Positions 2,939 through 6,732 of a stretch of DNA of 64,000 nucleotides are shown piece after piece (position 1 is the first letter of the stretch; every line of letters begins with the position of its first letter). This DNA is from Bradyrhizobium lablabi (lineage in GTDB: Bacteria; Pseudomonadota; Alphaproteobacteria; Rhizobiales; Xanthobacteraceae). The translations under genes were made by a program, and so were the position numbers. Location of the stretch: NCBI RefSeq assembly GCF_018129385.1, contig NZ_JAFCLN010000022.1, positions 1 to 64,000 on the forward strand, read 5' to 3'. The notes under the pieces were generated by a model, which was not told the DNA's origin, searched no databases, and was given only the letters and a program-made list of their open reading frames with translations.

Positions 2939-3013
2939 GCTCCCTTCGTCTAGCGGTTAGGACGCGGCCCTCTCAAGGCTGAAACAGGGGTTCGATTCCC
3001 CTAGGGAGCGCCA
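2939..3013 (+). tRNA. tRNA-Glu (anticodon CTC)
   Basis: The cloverleaf can be read directly. The acceptor GCTCCCT pairs with AGGGAGC, the D-arm contains TAGCGGTTAGGA, the anticodon loop CTCTCAA has anticodon CTC, and the T-arm GGGGTTCGATTCCCC is intact. The 3' CCA is encoded. Its 3' end abuts the accessory segment, and tRNA 3' ends are common integration sites. No integrase gene is visible in the window. Confidence 0.95.
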
Positions 3014-3161
3014 AAAAAATCAACGACAAACGCGATGCCGTCGCCGTTCCGAATCAAGCGATGCTTCTCGGATGGTGCTGCTGTCAGGCTGGCATGCCGA
3101 GTCAGGGGGGCGCGGGTGCCCGTCTCCAGGCAAGCGCACGATCGCGGTCGCGCCCACCGAT

Positions 3162-3572
3162 TCACTTTCGCAACATCTGCTTGAGCCGTCCGAACGCCCT
3201 TGCGACGACAATGCGGATCCAGCTTGTCCATGTCTGCAGCTTGGCTTCGCGCTCGACATGCCGAGCGATCTGCCTGCGCATCGTTGACGAGGCCATGGCG
3301 TCCGAGAACGCGGCGAGCCACTGCACTCGGCCGGACGTGATGATGTAGTGGGACTTGCAAGGTGCGTCGCAGACCGAGATCGACGGCCGCACGGTCGCGA
3401 AACCGTTCTGCTGCGACACCTGGTGACTGTCAGGCACCAAGAGCATAACGCGATGTCCGCAGCCGCAGGCGCAGGAAAGCGCAGCGACGTCGAATTCCGG
3501 GGAGTGGTAGAGGACTCCCTGTTCGAGTTGCTTGGGCAGGCGTTCGACGGCCCGATACATGAAGCTCACCAT
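3162..3572 (-). CDS. DUF6527-type Cys-rich protein, third gene of the ubiquitin-like operon
   Basis: This 136-residue protein has the pattern I associate with DUF6527: a CACGCGH cluster (Cys 34, 36, 38), then PSI, then C68, C72 and H75 in PCKSHYII, then GRVQW. The Cys/His spacing suggests a small zinc-binding fold. A basic alpha-helical tail follows residue 95. The start lies 5 bp after the E1-like gene's stop, so the two are almost certainly co-transcribed. Biochemical role is unknown. Because the operon has no recognisable separate E2 or JAB protease, this protein is a candidate for a transfer, adaptor or deconjugation role. That is inference from context only. Confidence 0.75.
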   Translation of the reverse strand: MVSFMYRAVERLPKQLEQGVLYHSPEFDVAALSCACGCGHRVMLLVPDSHQVSQQNGFATVRPSISVCDAPCKSHYIITSGRVQWLAAFSDAMASSTMRRQIARHVEREAKLQTWTSWIRIVVARAFGRLKQMLRK

Positions 3573-3577
3573 GCGTC

Positions 3578-4759
3578 CTATTCCATCTCCATCGTCGCCG
3601 TATCGAAGATGTACGACGTTGCCTCGTCCAGACGATCGAGCAGTTTGAAATGCTGCTTAAACCTGATCACGGCCATGACCGCGTTTAGCGCGTTCAACTC
3701 CGTGATCTGCGCCTGCTTGCGATACTCGTTTTCCTTGGCGTTCTCGACGGGCAACCGCGCGCTGCCGACGTTGTTGTCGTACGCCTTGCGGTCGGTGCCG
3801 GTGACGCGGACGAAACCGCTCAGTCCCACCAGGGACCTGTCCAGCCCCATCCCGCAGTCGATGTAGGGAATTCCTCGCGCGCTCAGCCAATCGACGATCA
3901 GCTTGCGGGCCGGGCCGTCGTCGACCGAGACGAAGACGAACTCGAAGCCGGCCAGGCGGTCGATGTTCGCCGAAGTGATGCGCTCGGGCACCGGCTCCAG
4001 GCCCGAATGCCAGTTGCCATACTGACGCGCCAGCGCATCCACCTTGAAGCCTCCGATCGCATCGGGAATGAACCCCGGGATCCGGAAGATCGTGTGGACG
4101 TGCACCTTGTCGTCGTCGAAGAGCGCGATGAGATCGACATGGGTCCGCGCAACGAAATCGAGGATGTACGAACCGGTCCCGCCCAAGCCGACGATGGCGA
4201 TGCGCTTGCCGCGAAGCAGCGAGGAGACGTCGTTCATGTGATACCTCGAGGACATCATGTCGGGAAACCGCAGCGGACTGCCTTGGGCCGCGGCCTTCAC
4301 CGCTATGCCGCCGAACGGCGTCGCGTCCGGGTACGCCGCCATCGCAGGCGCCGTGATCGCATCGAGATAGGTCTGCACCTTCTCCTCGAACGAGCGGTAG
4401 TCGCGGTTCGCGCCGTTCTCCTGCAGCTTGAACGAGAACGACTGATCGGTGACCAGATCCGGGGCGATGGTCACCTGATGCGCTCCGCCGCCGAGCCTGA
4501 GTTGCCGTTTCTGCTGGTCGAACGGCCGGGTGCCTCGCCACCATGCCTGGTGATTGGAGGGCTTGTCGATCACGGCCCCGTTGAGGTCGAGAGGGCTAGC
4601 CCAATCTCCATGCTTGAGCGCGCCGTGATCGTCGAGATACGGCAGGCCGTAGATGACGAAGTAGCCCCCGACGAAGTCGAGGTGGTAGCCGAGCTCCTCG
4701 AGATCCCTGATGAAGGGGTTATGATTCGCCAGTTCCGGCAACCCTAAAGCGCATGCCAT
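3578..4759 (-). CDS. E1-like ThiF-family adenylyltransferase with N-terminal DUF6791-type domain
   Basis: This is a 393-residue protein. Residues about 1-170 match the N-terminal domain I know as DUF6791. Residues about 180-390 form a ThiF/E1 adenylation fold: the nucleotide-binding loop GLGGTGSY at 191-198, the acidic FDDDKV strand at 214-219 and FVFVSVDDG at about 275-282. E1-like enzymes adenylate the C-terminus of a ubiquitin-like partner. The only cysteines are C3 and C302 (in IDCGMG), so any thioester step must use one of these or another protein. The first 41 bases overlap the multi-ubiquitin gene in another frame, which suggests translational coupling. A GAAGG-type ribosome site precedes the chosen ATG. 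Confidence 0.88.
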   Translation of the reverse strand: MACALGLPELANHNPFIRDLEELGYHLDFVGGYFVIYGLPYLDDHGALKHGDWASPLDLNGAVIDKPSNHQAWWRGTRPFDQQKRQLRLGGGAHQVTIAPDLVTDQSFSFKLQENGANRDYRSFEEKVQTYLDAITAPAMAAYPDATPFGGIAVKAAAQGSPLRFPDMMSSRYHMNDVSSLLRGKRIAIVGLGGTGSYILDFVARTHVDLIALFDDDKVHVHTIFRIPGFIPDAIGGFKVDALARQYGNWHSGLEPVPERITSANIDRLAGFEFVFVSVDDGPARKLIVDWLSARGIPYIDCGMGLDRSLVGLSGFVRVTGTDRKAYDNNVGSARLPVENAKENEYRKQAQITELNALNAVMAVIRFKQHFKLLDRLDEATSYIFDTATMEME

Positions 4760-5171
4760 CCTTCACCTTCACCTTCTCTCCGGGAGCCAAAGTGCCGTTC
4801 GGGTTTTCCGCCGGACCGTGCGAATACTTGACTAGGTATTCGTTCGACGGGCTGCCGCCGCTGCCGAGATAGAGATCGACGACCTGAGCGTAGGTGATGT
4901 GCTTCTTTTCGATCTGGTGCTCGTCAGTGTTCACGAAGATCTCGATCACCTTCTGGCTGTAGAAGTGCTCGTCTTCCTTCAGACGGATGCGCTCGCCGTC
5001 GCGCGGCACCGGCTTGTCTTCCTTGTCGCCGTCGACCTCGCGGTAGAGGCGCTGATGCGCCGGAATTCCCGCCAGGCCATAAAGGGCCTCGCCGGTGGTC
5101 GGGTTCGGCGATTCGTAGGCCTCCCGGTTGATGTGAATGCGCACCCGGTGCGCTGCGACCTCGACAGACAT
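4719..5171 (-). CDS. Multi-ubiquitin-like protein with two ubiquitin-like repeats
   Basis: This 150-residue protein consists of two tandem ubiquitin-like units, about residues 10-73 and 74-150, each predicted to be beta-rich and each ending in an aromatic motif (EHFYSQ; MRFRVAG). It fits the Pfam multi-ubiquitin family (PF14452), which I know from bacterial ubiquitin-like operons. The C-terminus is GTGES rather than a diglycine, so either it needs no maturation or the reactive end is unusual. It is the first gene of the leftward operon, followed by the overlapping E1-like gene. A GGAAAGG ribosome site lies upstream of the ATG. Likely role: the modifier or scaffold activated by the E1-like partner. 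Confidence 0.85.
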   Translation of the reverse strand: MSVEVAAHRVRIHINREAYESPNPTTGEALYGLAGIPAHQRLYREVDGDKEDKPVPRDGERIRLKEDEHFYSQKVIEIFVNTDEHQIEKKHITYAQVVDLYLGSGGSPSNEYLVKYSHGPAENPNGTLAPGEKVKVKDGMRFRVAGTGES

Positions 5172-5226
5172 ATCCAGTACCTTTCCGCGCTTCGGCGCTT
5201 GCGTTTTTCCCGAGCCGGTGTAGGCT

Positions 5227-5244
5227 GGTGTCTAGCCAGACAAC
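5227..5244. promoter_or_regulatory. Operator O1 of the divergent ubiquitin-like/XRE control region
   Basis: GGTGTC-TAGCCA-GACAAC is an 18-bp inverted repeat with one mismatch. It lies 56 bp before the multi-ubiquitin start, and on the minus strand its TTGTC half could serve as the -35 element. It matches O2 in half-site and spacer length. Confidence 0.7.
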
Positions 5245-5292
5245 AGTTGGCCCCGAAAAACGCCCCGTCCGGCACGCTGCCGGAGAGGGCGT

Positions 5293-5310
5293 GTTGTCCA
5301 GCTAGACAAC
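5293..5310. promoter_or_regulatory. Operator O2 of the divergent ubiquitin-like/XRE control region
   Basis: GTTGTC-CAGCTA-GACAAC is a perfect inverted repeat in its half-sites with a 6-bp spacer. It lies 36 bp before the XRE start, where TTGTCC could be the -35 element and a TGTAAAA stretch the -10. Centre-to-centre distance to O1 is 66 bp. It is the likely binding site of the XRE protein. Confidence 0.72.
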
Positions 5311-5346
5311 ATGTAAAAAACGGCAAAATTTTGGCGAGGAGGGACG

Positions 5347-5718
5347 ATGCCGGAAACGGCGCTAGGGACTTGGTTGAAGAATTTGCGCAATCGCCGCAGC
5401 TTGAGCCTGCGGGAACTCGCCGATCGCAGCGGCGTCGACCACGCCTACATCCACCGCCTGGAAGCTGGGGTTAAGGAATCCCCTTCCGAGGAGGTGGTCG
5501 ACAAACTTGTGTCGGCGCTCGCGCCGTCCAAGCGCGATGCCGAGATCCTGCGCTTCCTGGTCGAACACGGCAACATCGACATCAAGCTTGTCGATTTCGT
5601 CCGTGAGGATCCGAACGTCGTATTTGACGAATTTCACATGTTGACGACGGTGGTGAACCGCGGAGCGCGACCCGATTATGCGACCTCGCTCGCCCGCATC
5701 CGGAAATTCATGAAATAG
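5347..5718 (+). CDS. XRE-family helix-turn-helix regulator
   Basis: This 123-residue protein has an HTH_XRE domain at about residues 7-40 (LRELADRSGVDHAYIHRLE) and a C-terminal region of about 80 residues likely to mediate dimerisation or contact with the peptidase. A strong GAGGAGG ribosome site precedes the ATG. It lies divergent to the multi-ubiquitin operon and 11 bp before the peptidase gene. Repressor/ImmA-type peptidase pairs are known as inducible switches, for example in ICEBs1 and CapH/CapP of CBASS. By analogy this protein probably represses both the ubiquitin-like operon and itself through O1 and O2. Confidence 0.9.
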   Translation: MPETALGTWLKNLRNRRSLSLRELADRSGVDHAYIHRLEAGVKESPSEEVVDKLVSALAPSKRDAEILRFLVEHGNIDIKLVDFVREDPNVVFDEFHMLTTVVNRGARPDYATSLARIRKFMK

Positions 5719-5729
5719 GGGCACGGCCT

Positions 5730-6590
5730 ATGTTCGATGAACTCGATATCGCAACGAAGGCGCGGGAGTTCATCAAGCTCTGCGGGCCGCCCGCCTTGCC
5801 CGTCTCGGTCCAAGCGTATGCGGCGCAGATCGGCGGGACGGTAGTCGAAGAGGCGTTGGGGGAGAACGAGGATGCGTGGTCCTTCCGCGACACCGGCGGC
5901 AAGTACCGCATCTGCGTGAACTGCGCGCAGAACCCGAGGCGCCGGCGCTTCAGCGTCTGCCATGAAGTGGCCCACGTCGCCCTCGGAATCGAGGCGGATC
6001 ACTCGACTCCGAGCTGGAGCTATGCTCGCCGGCCGCCGGGCGAGATCGCCTGCGACGTCTTCGCCGCCGAGCTGCTGCTGCCCTATCAGTTGTTCAAACC
6101 TCGGGTCGACAGCGCCGACATCGGGCTGGCCTCGATCGGCGAATTGGCCGACGAGTTCGACGCGTCGCTGCTTTCCACCGGCTCGCGGTTCGCGACGTTC
6201 TCGCGCGAATTGTGTGCGTTCGTCGTCTCGGAAGGCGGCAAGATCCGTTACAGCGCCCGGTCGGCAGGTCTTCGCCAGGCCAAGGGCTGGATCAGACCGG
6301 GCTCGTCTCTGCCGTCCGATTCCTACAGCGCGCGCGTTCGCGCTGGCGAGAGGCCCTCCAGCCCCGAGGAAGCCGAGCCGGACCAGTGGTTCGAGGACTG
6401 GGAACGCGACGGGGTGCTCATTGAGGACACCCGGCATCTGGGACCATGGGACCAGACGCTGACCTTGCTGTGGTTCGACGAGGAGGAATTGGCGCCGCCG
6501 TCCGAACGAAAACATTGGGACGAGGACGCCTATCGGTTGCGGGAGCTCGACGGTGTGCTTCCTTGGCCCGGGCGAAACAAACGCAAGTAG
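5730..6590 (+). CDS. ImmA/IrrE-family metallopeptidase
   Basis: This 286-residue protein has the zinc-peptidase motif CHEVAHVALGIE (H78, E79, H82) and a downstream EIACDVFAAELLLP stretch that supplies the usual third ligand (about E105). This places it in the ImmA/IrrE (DUF955) family. A C-terminal extension of about 150 residues, rich in acidic and aromatic residues, is longer than in minimal ImmA proteins and may sense a signal. Family members cleave a partner XRE repressor; the partner here is the gene just upstream. The expected result is derepression of the ubiquitin-like operon on stress or infection, by analogy only. Confidence 0.9.
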   Translation: MFDELDIATKAREFIKLCGPPALPVSVQAYAAQIGGTVVEEALGENEDAWSFRDTGGKYRICVNCAQNPRRRRFSVCHEVAHVALGIEADHSTPSWSYARRPPGEIACDVFAAELLLPYQLFKPRVDSADIGLASIGELADEFDASLLSTGSRFATFSRELCAFVVSEGGKIRYSARSAGLRQAKGWIRPGSSLPSDSYSARVRAGERPSSPEEAEPDQWFEDWERDGVLIEDTRHLGPWDQTLTLLWFDEEELAPPSERKHWDEDAYRLRELDGVLPWPGRNKRK

Positions 6591-6732
6591 GACGACGGCT
6601 CTACGCGGCGTCTGGGTTAACTTCGAGCCGCATGGCGTTGCGCGAAAGTCGCTCCGGGCGACTGTAACTACTCCGAGGGTTCTTCGGACTTGATCAGGAG
6701 GCTCAACATTATCTAGCTATGGCCCGCAGCCA

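What the first reader, a model, noticed from the sequence alone, without database searches (positions are those of the whole stretch)
3162..6590. Ubiquitin-like conjugation module under a repressor/peptidase switch
A multi-ubiquitin-like protein, a DUF6791-ThiF E1-like enzyme and a DUF6527-type protein form one overlapping operon. Divergent to it is an XRE repressor with an ImmA/IrrE peptidase. Bacterial ubiquitin-like (Bil/Bub) operons defend against phages, and XRE/peptidase pairs (CapH/CapP) control CBASS. The combination seen here, two-repeat modifier plus E1 plus DUF6527 plus switch, is not one I can name as a characterised system. Each component family is known; the assembled operon and its control are the candidate novelty.
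Basis: partly seen in the sequence, partly recalled or inferred. Interest (0 to 1): 0.9.

Follow-up and report, generated by a model that had tools for sequence, protein, structure and literature searches.

The report
DNA-damage-switched ubiquitin-like tagging operon
A small bacterial operon that probably tags proteins with a ubiquitin-like protein sits beside a repressor/protease switch of the DNA-damage type; it looks like a compact, mobile variant of the recently described Bub pathways, with two predicted repressor sites and a candidate fused E1-E2 enzyme.

Summary
Window 3162-6590 holds DUF6527, DUF6791-ThiF (E1) and a multiubiquitin-type modifier on the minus strand, and a divergent XRE gene plus M78 peptidase gene on the plus strand. 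PADLOC models call the pair CapH and CapP (CapP 173.8 bits). The adjacent triad occurs in 74 of 80 loci, from Proteobacteria to a Nitrosopumilus contig. An M78 peptidase lies within 2.5 kb upstream in 60 of 98 unique loci, against 2 of 98 downstream. Between the divergent genes lie two TGKTGTC-N6-GACAACA palindromes, the only two in the 7.24-Mb genome at up to one mismatch, kept in all nine compared loci whose CapH is 60% or more identical. The novelty claim is only partly right: Bub operons with CapH+CapP are in print (PMC13373217). This is a compact form without a Prok-E2_E protein or JAB domain. DUF6791 may replace the E2; the sequence evidence is weak, but the two families shared no locus examined. 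DUF6527 is the candidate deconjugase. Conjugation, DNA-damage induction and any phage phenotype are inferred, not shown.

The parts
3162..3572 (-). DUF6527 protein, 136 aa; candidate deconjugating Ser/His hydrolase with a Cys-rich (perhaps zinc) site; S64 (3381-3383), H75 (3348-3350), C34/C36/C38/C72
   Evidence: PF20137 57.5 bits; C34, C36, C38 and S64 in 94 of 94, H75 and C72 in 93 of 94 unique homologues; AF2 model pLDDT 89.6; no useful match among solved structures
3578..4759 (-). DUF6791-ThiF protein, 393 aa: E1 adenylyltransferase with an N-terminal candidate E2-like domain
   Evidence: PF20590 81.4 + PF00899 60.2 bits; model pLDDT 77.1; Citrobacter BubCD heads the fold list, Z 23.2, over the ThiF part, SUMO E1 and ThiF close behind at 22.1
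4433..4435 (-). codon of S109 in the FSxK motif of DUF6791, candidate oxyester nucleophile
   Evidence: Ser in 63 of 65, Cys in 2 of 65 aligned DUF6791 domains (the two Cys rows read LCSR, so their alignment is ambiguous)
4719..5171 (-). ubiquitin-like modifier, 150 aa, probably two beta-grasp repeats, ends TGES with C-terminal Ser
   Evidence: PF14452 54.6 bits; PDB 9cd2 profile match E 1.1e-24; 96 of 96 unique homologues end in Ser (gene-overlap caveat)
5226..5245 (.). predicted CapH operator 1, modifier side: TGGTGTC-N6-GACAACA
5292..5311 (.). predicted CapH operator 2, capH side: TGTTGTC-N6-GACAACA
5347..5718 (+). capH-type XRE repressor, 123 aa
   Evidence: HTH_31 45 bits; PADLOC capH 44.6 bits, E 5.9e-12
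5730..6590 (+). capP-type M78 (ImmA/IrrE) metallopeptidase, 286 aa, HEVAH
   Evidence: PF06114 48.2 bits; PADLOC capP 173.8 bits, E 1e-51, residues 6-250 on profile 4-242 of 242
2939..3013 (+). tRNA-Glu(CUC) bordering the module; likely island boundary, not part of the mechanism
   Evidence: present with rluD in 11 of 11 relatives (adjacent in 7, about 6 kb apart in 4); homology to the window ends within 23 bp of the tRNA 3' end in all 11

Best explanation
A compact, mobile, Bub-like protein-tagging operon held off by a CapH repressor. CapH binds two palindromes between the divergent genes and silences the modifier operon and probably itself. When ssDNA appears (DNA damage, infection, incoming DNA), CapP is activated and cleaves CapH, and the operon is expressed. 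The ThiF domain adenylates the modifier's C-terminus (Ser). The modifier passes to the conserved Ser of the fused DUF6791 domain, used as an E2-like oxyester station, and then to target proteins. DUF6527 removes or edits the tag. Shown here: gene content, conservation, CapH/CapP model matches, a unique conserved palindrome pair, E1 family and fold. Inferred: CapH binding, ssDNA triggering (from CapP and PprI literature), the E2 role of DUF6791, the hydrolase role of DUF6527, targets and benefit.
For: Adjacent triad in 74 of 80 loci across phyla. CapH/CapP PADLOC matches; in 10 M78 proteins that I picked from related loci, capP was the top PADLOC model in 8. M78 within 2.5 kb upstream in 60 of 98 unique loci versus 2 of 98 downstream. 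Two palindromes, alone in the genome, present in all nine compared loci with CapH 60% or more identical. BubCD heads the E1 fold list (Z 23.2). Prok-E2_E-like ORFs in 0 of 98 DUF6791 loci, DUF6791 in 0 of 35 Prok-E2_E loci. DUF6527 also occurs in the four strong Prok-E2_E operons fetched with long flanks. PMC10904395 (passages) says that ssDNA activates CapH cleavage by CapP.
Against: No experiment. DUF6791 versus Prok-E2_E is statistically weak: hhalign E 0.043-0.051, 5 of 200 column shuffles score as high, and as a control the unrelated DUF6527 profile scored higher (20.3, E 0.012, but 44 columns only). No PDB sequence match for DUF6791 at E below 0.38. DUF6527 has no useful fold match and is absent from 5 of 9 other multiubiquitin-type loci. 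38 of 98 unique loci have no M78 gene found upstream (7 of them with under 2.5 kb of upstream DNA). L095, with a capP-type peptidase, has none of the palindromes, so the operator is not general. The C-terminal Ser overlaps the E1 gene in 94 of 96 loci, and the modifier of one Prok-E2_E operon (L084) also ends in Ser. No promoter-like hexamers in 5100-5400.
Confidence: 0.58

Rival explanations
1. The DUF6791-ThiF protein is an E1-only enzyme (MoeB/MccB/PaaA-like): DUF6791 is a substrate- or modifier-docking domain, not an E2, and the activated modifier reacts directly with targets, with a small molecule or with a sulfur donor.
For: No significant sequence match of DUF6791 to a solved E2; the Prok-E2_E comparison is weak and a control profile scored higher; fold matches of the protein include MccB, PaaA and ThiF; no invariant Cys in alignment A2.
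Against: Collinear 104-column alignment to Prok-E2_E, longer than in any of 200 shuffles (longest 65), pairing the conserved Ser of both families; the two families shared no locus examined; predicted order helix, strands, Ser, helix.
Confidence: 0.33
2. CapH/CapP regulate the operon, but it is a general stress or plasmid/island-maintenance system rather than phage defence.
For: [quoted passage not shown] the E1 is on 110 plasmid records, 38 conjugative and 42 mobilizable; the module lies at a tRNA-Glu with variable DNA behind it.
Against: Bil relatives are anti-phage (recalled; also said of these systems in general in PMC12687455, passage); on the B. barranii plasmid the neighbours include AbiEii-type genes and a caspase-helicase.
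Confidence: 0.35
3. The XRE/M78 pair is a chance neighbour and the triad is constitutive.
For: The pair is missing beside the closest E1 relative L055 and beside L060.
Against: 60 of 98 upstream versus 2 of 98 downstream; paired palindromes between the divergent genes, conserved with CapH; L060 has an HTH-M78 fusion upstream instead, and L055 keeps one palindrome.
Confidence: 0.03

Closest known systems
Bub (bacterial ubiquitination-like) operons, e.g. Citrobacter BubA, BubB, BubCD (PDB 9ea4, 9eae, 9eav, 9ea8)
   Same: Multiubiquitin-type modifier, ThiF E1 (BubCD heads the fold list, Z 23.2); CapH+CapP, CapW and CapK+CapS are reported beside Bub operons (PMC13373217, passages), and CapH/CapP, WYL and HATPase/winged-helix genes were found beside the triad here.
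   Different: No Prok-E2_E protein and no JAB domain on the E1; DUF6791 in their place.
CapH + CapP controller (CBASS and other immune operons)
   Same: PADLOC capH and capP matches, adjacent pair, HExxH peptidase.
   Different: Sits beside a Ubl operon; HTH-M78 fusions and M78-UvrD-PDDEXK fusions occupy the same place in relatives.
PDB 9cd2, 'ZDHYS365 multi-ubiquitin domain protein'
   Same: Modifier family, E 1.1e-24, C-terminal Ser.
   Different: 222 residues against 150; its operon could not be checked.
Type II CBASS Cap2 (E2-E1 fusion) and BilABCD
   Same: Bacterial Ubl conjugation; Cap2 is a fused E2-E1 (recalled); weak PADLOC E1-E2 matches to the ThiF part.
   Different: No cyclase or separate E2 gene in the window module; different modifier family.
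PprI/DdrO of Deinococcus
   Same: M78 peptidase that binds ssDNA and cleaves a repressor (PMC10904395, abstract start and passages).
   Different: Global DNA-damage response rather than one adjacent operon (recalled).

Membership tests
Bub operon | Ubl modifier | tested here: met
   PF14452 54.6 bits; 9cd2 profile match E 1.1e-24
Bub operon | ThiF-type E1 | tested here: met
   PF00899 60.2 bits; BubCD heads the fold list, Z 23.2
Bub operon | E2 enzyme (PMC12687455, passage, lists UBL, E1, E2 and a protease), here taken as a separate Prok-E2_E protein | tested here: not met
   PF14462 has no match in the window's genome; no Prok-E2_E-like ORF in 98 of 98 DUF6791 loci. Whether DUF6791 is itself an E2 is a separate row
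Bub operon | JAB domain fused to the E1 as in BubCD | tested here: not met
   Pfam finds DUF6791 + ThiF and no Prok-JAB in the 393-aa protein; the JAB-ThiF form is seen in L084
Bub operon | specific deconjugating protease (Ser/His dyad recalled from the Ye et al. abstract) | tested here: inconclusive
   DUF6527 keeps Ser64 in 94 of 94 and His75 in 93 of 94; no sequence or fold match to a solved protease
CapH+CapP controller | CapP M78 peptidase with HExxH, full-length model match | tested here: met
   PADLOC capP E 1e-51, residues 6-250; HEVAH
CapH+CapP controller | CapH HTH repressor adjacent to capP | tested here: met
   PADLOC capH E 5.9e-12; genes 11 nt apart
CapH+CapP controller | CapH binding to the promoter region of the controlled operon | tested here: inconclusive
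   two conserved palindromes at 5226-5245 and 5292-5311, alone in the genome; binding not tested
CapH+CapP controller | ssDNA-activated cleavage of CapH by CapP | not testable with these tools
   needs biochemistry
E2 (UBC) fold for DUF6791 | UBC fold / homology to an E2 | tested here: inconclusive

The most novel reading that the evidence does not exclude
A minimal ubiquitin-like conjugation cascade made of three genes, found from bacteria to Nitrosopumilus: one DUF6791-ThiF polypeptide acts as E1 and, through a Ser (rarely Cys) in its DUF6791 domain, as an oxyester E2; the modifier ends in an invariant C-terminal serine; DUF6527 is the matching Ser/His deconjugase; and metallopeptidase switches that sense damaged DNA were recruited repeatedly (split CapH+CapP, HTH-M78 fusions, M78-UvrD-nuclease fusions).
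Probability: 0.35. Interest if true: 0.75.

Novelty: new variant of a known kind. Interest (0 to 1): 0.52.

Why it matters
It would define a very simple bacterial ubiquitin-like cascade (one enzyme, one modifier, one deconjugase) and make the E1-to-E2 hand-over within one chain, serine oxyester chemistry and the use of a serine C-terminus directly testable. It also gives a concrete, predicted CapH operator for a Ubl operon that moves on plasmids and islands.

Tried and rejected
Idea that the XRE/peptidase pair is incidental: rejected by the upstream/downstream comparison and by the palindromes. The M78 model was home-made and seeded with nine proteins, eight of them from triad loci, and hits had to carry HExxH; this biases detection but not the side on which hits fall. 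Of the 98 loci, 88 have 2.5 kb upstream and 83 have 3.7 kb downstream.

Idea that the invariant C-terminal Ser is by itself proof of function: weakened. In 94 of 96 unique loci the modifier's stop lies inside the E1 gene (26 nt in 70 of 96), and the Ser codon overlaps E1 codons for a mostly [SND][RH][NS] stretch; only L117 and L159 have no overlap, and both still end in TGQS. For the window's subfamily the figure (41 or 23 nt) depends on which E1 start codon is chosen. The modifier of L084, a Prok-E2_E operon, also ends in Ser; the other ten listed modifiers of such operons do not.

DUF6527 fold: no useful match (Foldseek best E 0.98; VIA best Z 5.8, on the C-terminal helix). DUF6791 alone: no PDB sequence match (best E 0.38); the fold lists for the full protein are filled by the ThiF domain, so they did not test that domain's fold.

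Search for a repeat of the tRNA-Glu 3' end marking an attachment site: none found elsewhere in the window at 14-20 bases. No promoter-like or terminator-like site in 5100-5400. A phylum-wide search for Prok-E2_E gave too little diversity to sharpen the E2 comparison (4 of 299 genomes). Rows L180, L182, L183, L187, L190 and L195 were dropped from the E2 alignment (26 distinct rows before, 20 after) because phmmer had picked a wrong or cut ORF.
Full report
WHAT IS THERE. The five genes are present at the stated coordinates and match the stated families above Pfam cut-offs. The minus-strand order is modifier (4719-5171), DUF6791-ThiF (3578-4759), DUF6527 (3162-3572). Modifier and E1 ORFs overlap by 41 nt; E1 and DUF6527 are 5 nt apart. 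Divergent on the plus strand are an XRE gene (5347-5718) and an M78 peptidase gene (5730-6590). The genome is 7.24 Mb in 63 contigs. Contigs of genus mates have the same lengths as named Bradyrhizobium records (G147:C3 and NZ_AXAZ01000013.1, 157125 bases; G201:C4 and NZ_CP086139.1, 140264 bases), so the genus is very probably Bradyrhizobium (inference).

THE SWITCH. PADLOC models call the pair CapH (44.6 bits, E 5.9e-12) and CapP (173.8 bits, E 1e-51, residues 6-250). Of 10 M78 proteins that I picked from related loci, capP was the top PADLOC model in 8; the two HTH-M78 fusions (L161, L172) scored best with other models. In 98 unique E1 loci scanned with a home-made M78 profile plus HExxH, an M78 protein lay within 2.5 kb upstream in 60: 30 with a separate HTH gene, 13 fused to an HTH, 6 in fusions of over 900 aa (the one scanned, L070, is M78-UvrD-PD-(D/E)XK), 11 with no HTH found. 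Downstream within 3.7 kb there were 2 of 98; 88 of 98 have 2.5 kb upstream and 83 of 98 have 3.7 kb downstream. By distance, in 107 loci before removing duplicates: upstream 45 hits in the first kb (105 loci reach that far) and 22 in the second (102); downstream 0 (102) and 0 (98). The other 38 of 98 are 7 with short upstream DNA, 5 with an HTH only and 26 with neither. Nine upstream proteins from eight of those 26 loci were scanned: WYL regulators (L169, L117), an HATPase gene with a winged-helix gene as in CapK/CapS (L114), a RES domain (L116), an Xre antitoxin (L103), an AAA ATPase (L121), a sigma-70 region 4 protein (L132) and one without match (L143). [quoted passage not shown]

THE PALINDROMES. 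Aligning the modifier-XRE intergenic region of six relatives shows two conserved palindromes of the form TGKTGTC-N6-GACAACA in otherwise diverged sequence (L061 has one mismatch in each). In the window with up to 2 mismatches only these two places match, on both strands; shuffles give 0.27 matches on average. In the whole genome with up to one mismatch they are the only two places. Of 23 loci compared, all nine whose CapH is at least 60% identical to the window's have two sites with at most one mismatch (L056-L059, L061, L083, L096, L109, L222; L083 is the window itself). A Pseudomonas aeruginosa plasmid with a 34% identical CapH (L221) has three sites with one mismatch, one of them inside the 5' end of its HTH gene; Trinickia (L097, 41%) has two with one mismatch and two with two. 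L095 (CapH match 33% over 72 residues) has none. L060, with another regulator, has none; L055 and its named twin L220, without capH/capP, keep one site. This is the strongest direct evidence that CapH acts on this operon; binding was not tested, and no sigma-70-like hexamers were found.

THE CONJUGATION MODULE. Adjacent, same-strand modifier and DUF6527 genes were found in 74 of 80 (modifier missing in L110 and L156, a decayed copy and a contig end; DUF6527 missing in L111, L138, L155, L166). By record titles the hosts include Alpha-, Beta- and Gammaproteobacteria, Bacteroidota, Nitrospira, Acidobacteria, Actinomycetota, Bacillota, Armatimonadetes and a 1.86-Mb Nitrosopumilus contig (L158). 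In the genus, 25 of 195 genomes, the window's own included, have a near-full-length match (my count's list). The E1 model (pLDDT 77.1, pTM 0.56) has Citrobacter BubCD at the head of its fold list (Z 23.2, 3.1 A, 212 residues), with SUMO E1 and ThiF at 22.1, all over the ThiF part. BubCD is a JAB-E1 fusion by comparison with L084, whose JAB-ThiF protein matches 9ea4 over residues 48-421 of 469 (E 9.4e-37) and is encoded with a Prok-E2_E protein, a multiubiquitin protein and DUF6527. The window's protein has DUF6791 where BubCD has JAB, and no Prok-E2_E is found in the window's genome.

WHY DUF6791 MAY BE THE E2. First, the predicted order is helix, four strands, the conserved FSxK, helix, as in a UBC fold (recalled). 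Second, a profile alignment to Prok-E2_E runs collinearly over 104 columns and pairs the Ser of FSxK with the Ser of the WSRH motif; the score is weak (E 0.043-0.051; 5 of 200 column shuffles reach it), though no shuffle reaches the length (longest 65). Third, the residue is Ser in 63 and Cys in 2 of 65 domains, but the two Cys rows read LCSR, so the alignment there is ambiguous. Fourth, the two families shared no locus examined: 0 of 98 DUF6791 loci hold a Prok-E2_E-like ORF and 0 of 35 Prok-E2_E loci hold DUF6791, although 31 of the 35 are only about 3 kb long. Five genomes (G014, G016, G033, G162, G212) carry both families at separate places. Against: the DUF6527 profile, used as a control, scored higher against DUF6791 (20.3, E 0.012, 44 columns), and no PDB sequence matches DUF6791. 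That Bub enzymes work through oxyesters and that Bub operons contain a Ser/His protease is recalled from the abstract of Ye et al.; that paper is not held.

DUF6527 AND THE MODIFIER. DUF6527 keeps C34, C36, C38 and S64 in 94 of 94 and C72 and H75 in 93 of 94 unique sequences. It also sits in the four strong Prok-E2_E operons fetched with long flanks (L084, L087, L088, L090) but not in five other multiubiquitin-type loci (L085, L086, L089, L091, L092), so it is shared with part of the Bub-like operons only. All 96 unique modifiers end in Ser. In 94 of 96 this end overlaps the E1 gene, which may help to fix it; the two loci without overlap also end in Ser, as does PDB 9cd2. Of the modifiers of Prok-E2_E operons seen, ten listed rows (five of them alike) end otherwise and L084's ends in Ser.

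MOBILITY. At E 1e-20 the E1 is found in 110 plasmid records (43 Acinetobacter; 38 conjugative, 42 mobilizable, 30 non-mobilizable by MOB-suite) and at E 1e-10 in none of 50,697 phage records. A B. diazoefficiens plasmid matches 93% of window 3000-6700 at 86.5% identity; a Sinorhizobium numidicum plasmid has the five genes with a tyrosine recombinase next to DUF6527. In the window the module follows tRNA-Glu. In 11 of 11 relatives rluD and tRNA-Glu are present (adjacent in 7, about 6 kb apart in 4), homology to the window stops within 23 bp of the tRNA end, and no match to the module was found in the 15-kb stretches compared. L062 and L063 are decayed copies.

WHAT IS KNOWN AND WHAT IS NOT. PMC13373217 (passages) refers the definition of Bub operons to two papers that I could not read, reports CapW or CapH+CapP at 219 of 544, and says that protection against phage has not been demonstrated. 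PMC12687455 (passages) lists UBL, E1, E2 and a protease for Bub. In PMC1779556 (passages only) I saw no description of this operon. DUF6791 and DUF6527 return no paper in the held library. So the controller-plus-Ubl combination is in print in general; the compact DUF6791 form and the palindromes were not found in the searches made here, which cover open-licence papers only and mostly showed listings.

Noticed in passing
L068, L070, L073-L080 upstream of the modifier (e.g. L070:9571-12966): A protein of about 1130-1290 aa with an M78 domain lies directly upstream of the modifier, in the same direction; the one scanned (L070) is a fusion of M78 peptidase, UvrD helicase and PD-(D/E)XK nuclease, possibly a DNA-damage sensor fused to the protease.
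   Followed up: partly
L055:10047-13064 and L076-L080 downstream of DUF6527: A ~1000-aa protein follows DUF6527 in two distant subfamilies of the triad; the L055 copy is a caspase (C14)-DEAD helicase fusion. Candidate effector.
   Followed up: partly
L111, L138: The two DUF6791 domains with Cys at the S109 column are in loci in which no adjacent DUF6527 was found.
   Followed up: no
window 3014-55550: About 52 kb lie between tRNA-Glu and the point (about 55.6 kb) where homology resumes in 4 of 11 relatives' 15-kb stretches; genes in 11.6-40 kb look like regulators, transporters and acyl-CoA/P450-type enzymes (named by eye).
   Followed up: partly
L062:7784-9221 and L063:8646-9219: Decayed copies of the triad (broken E1, DUF6527 kept) in two genus mates.
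   Followed up: no
L064:2274-5738: A distant copy of the triad is divergent from an HTH-M78 fusion followed by what look like PIN-domain and SIR2-like genes (the last two named by eye).
   Followed up: no
L085:8558-9855 and L086:9501-10803: Multiubiquitin-type loci of another kind (separate ThiF of about 300 aa, no DUF6527) also carry a divergent XRE-type gene and an M78 gene.
   Followed up: no
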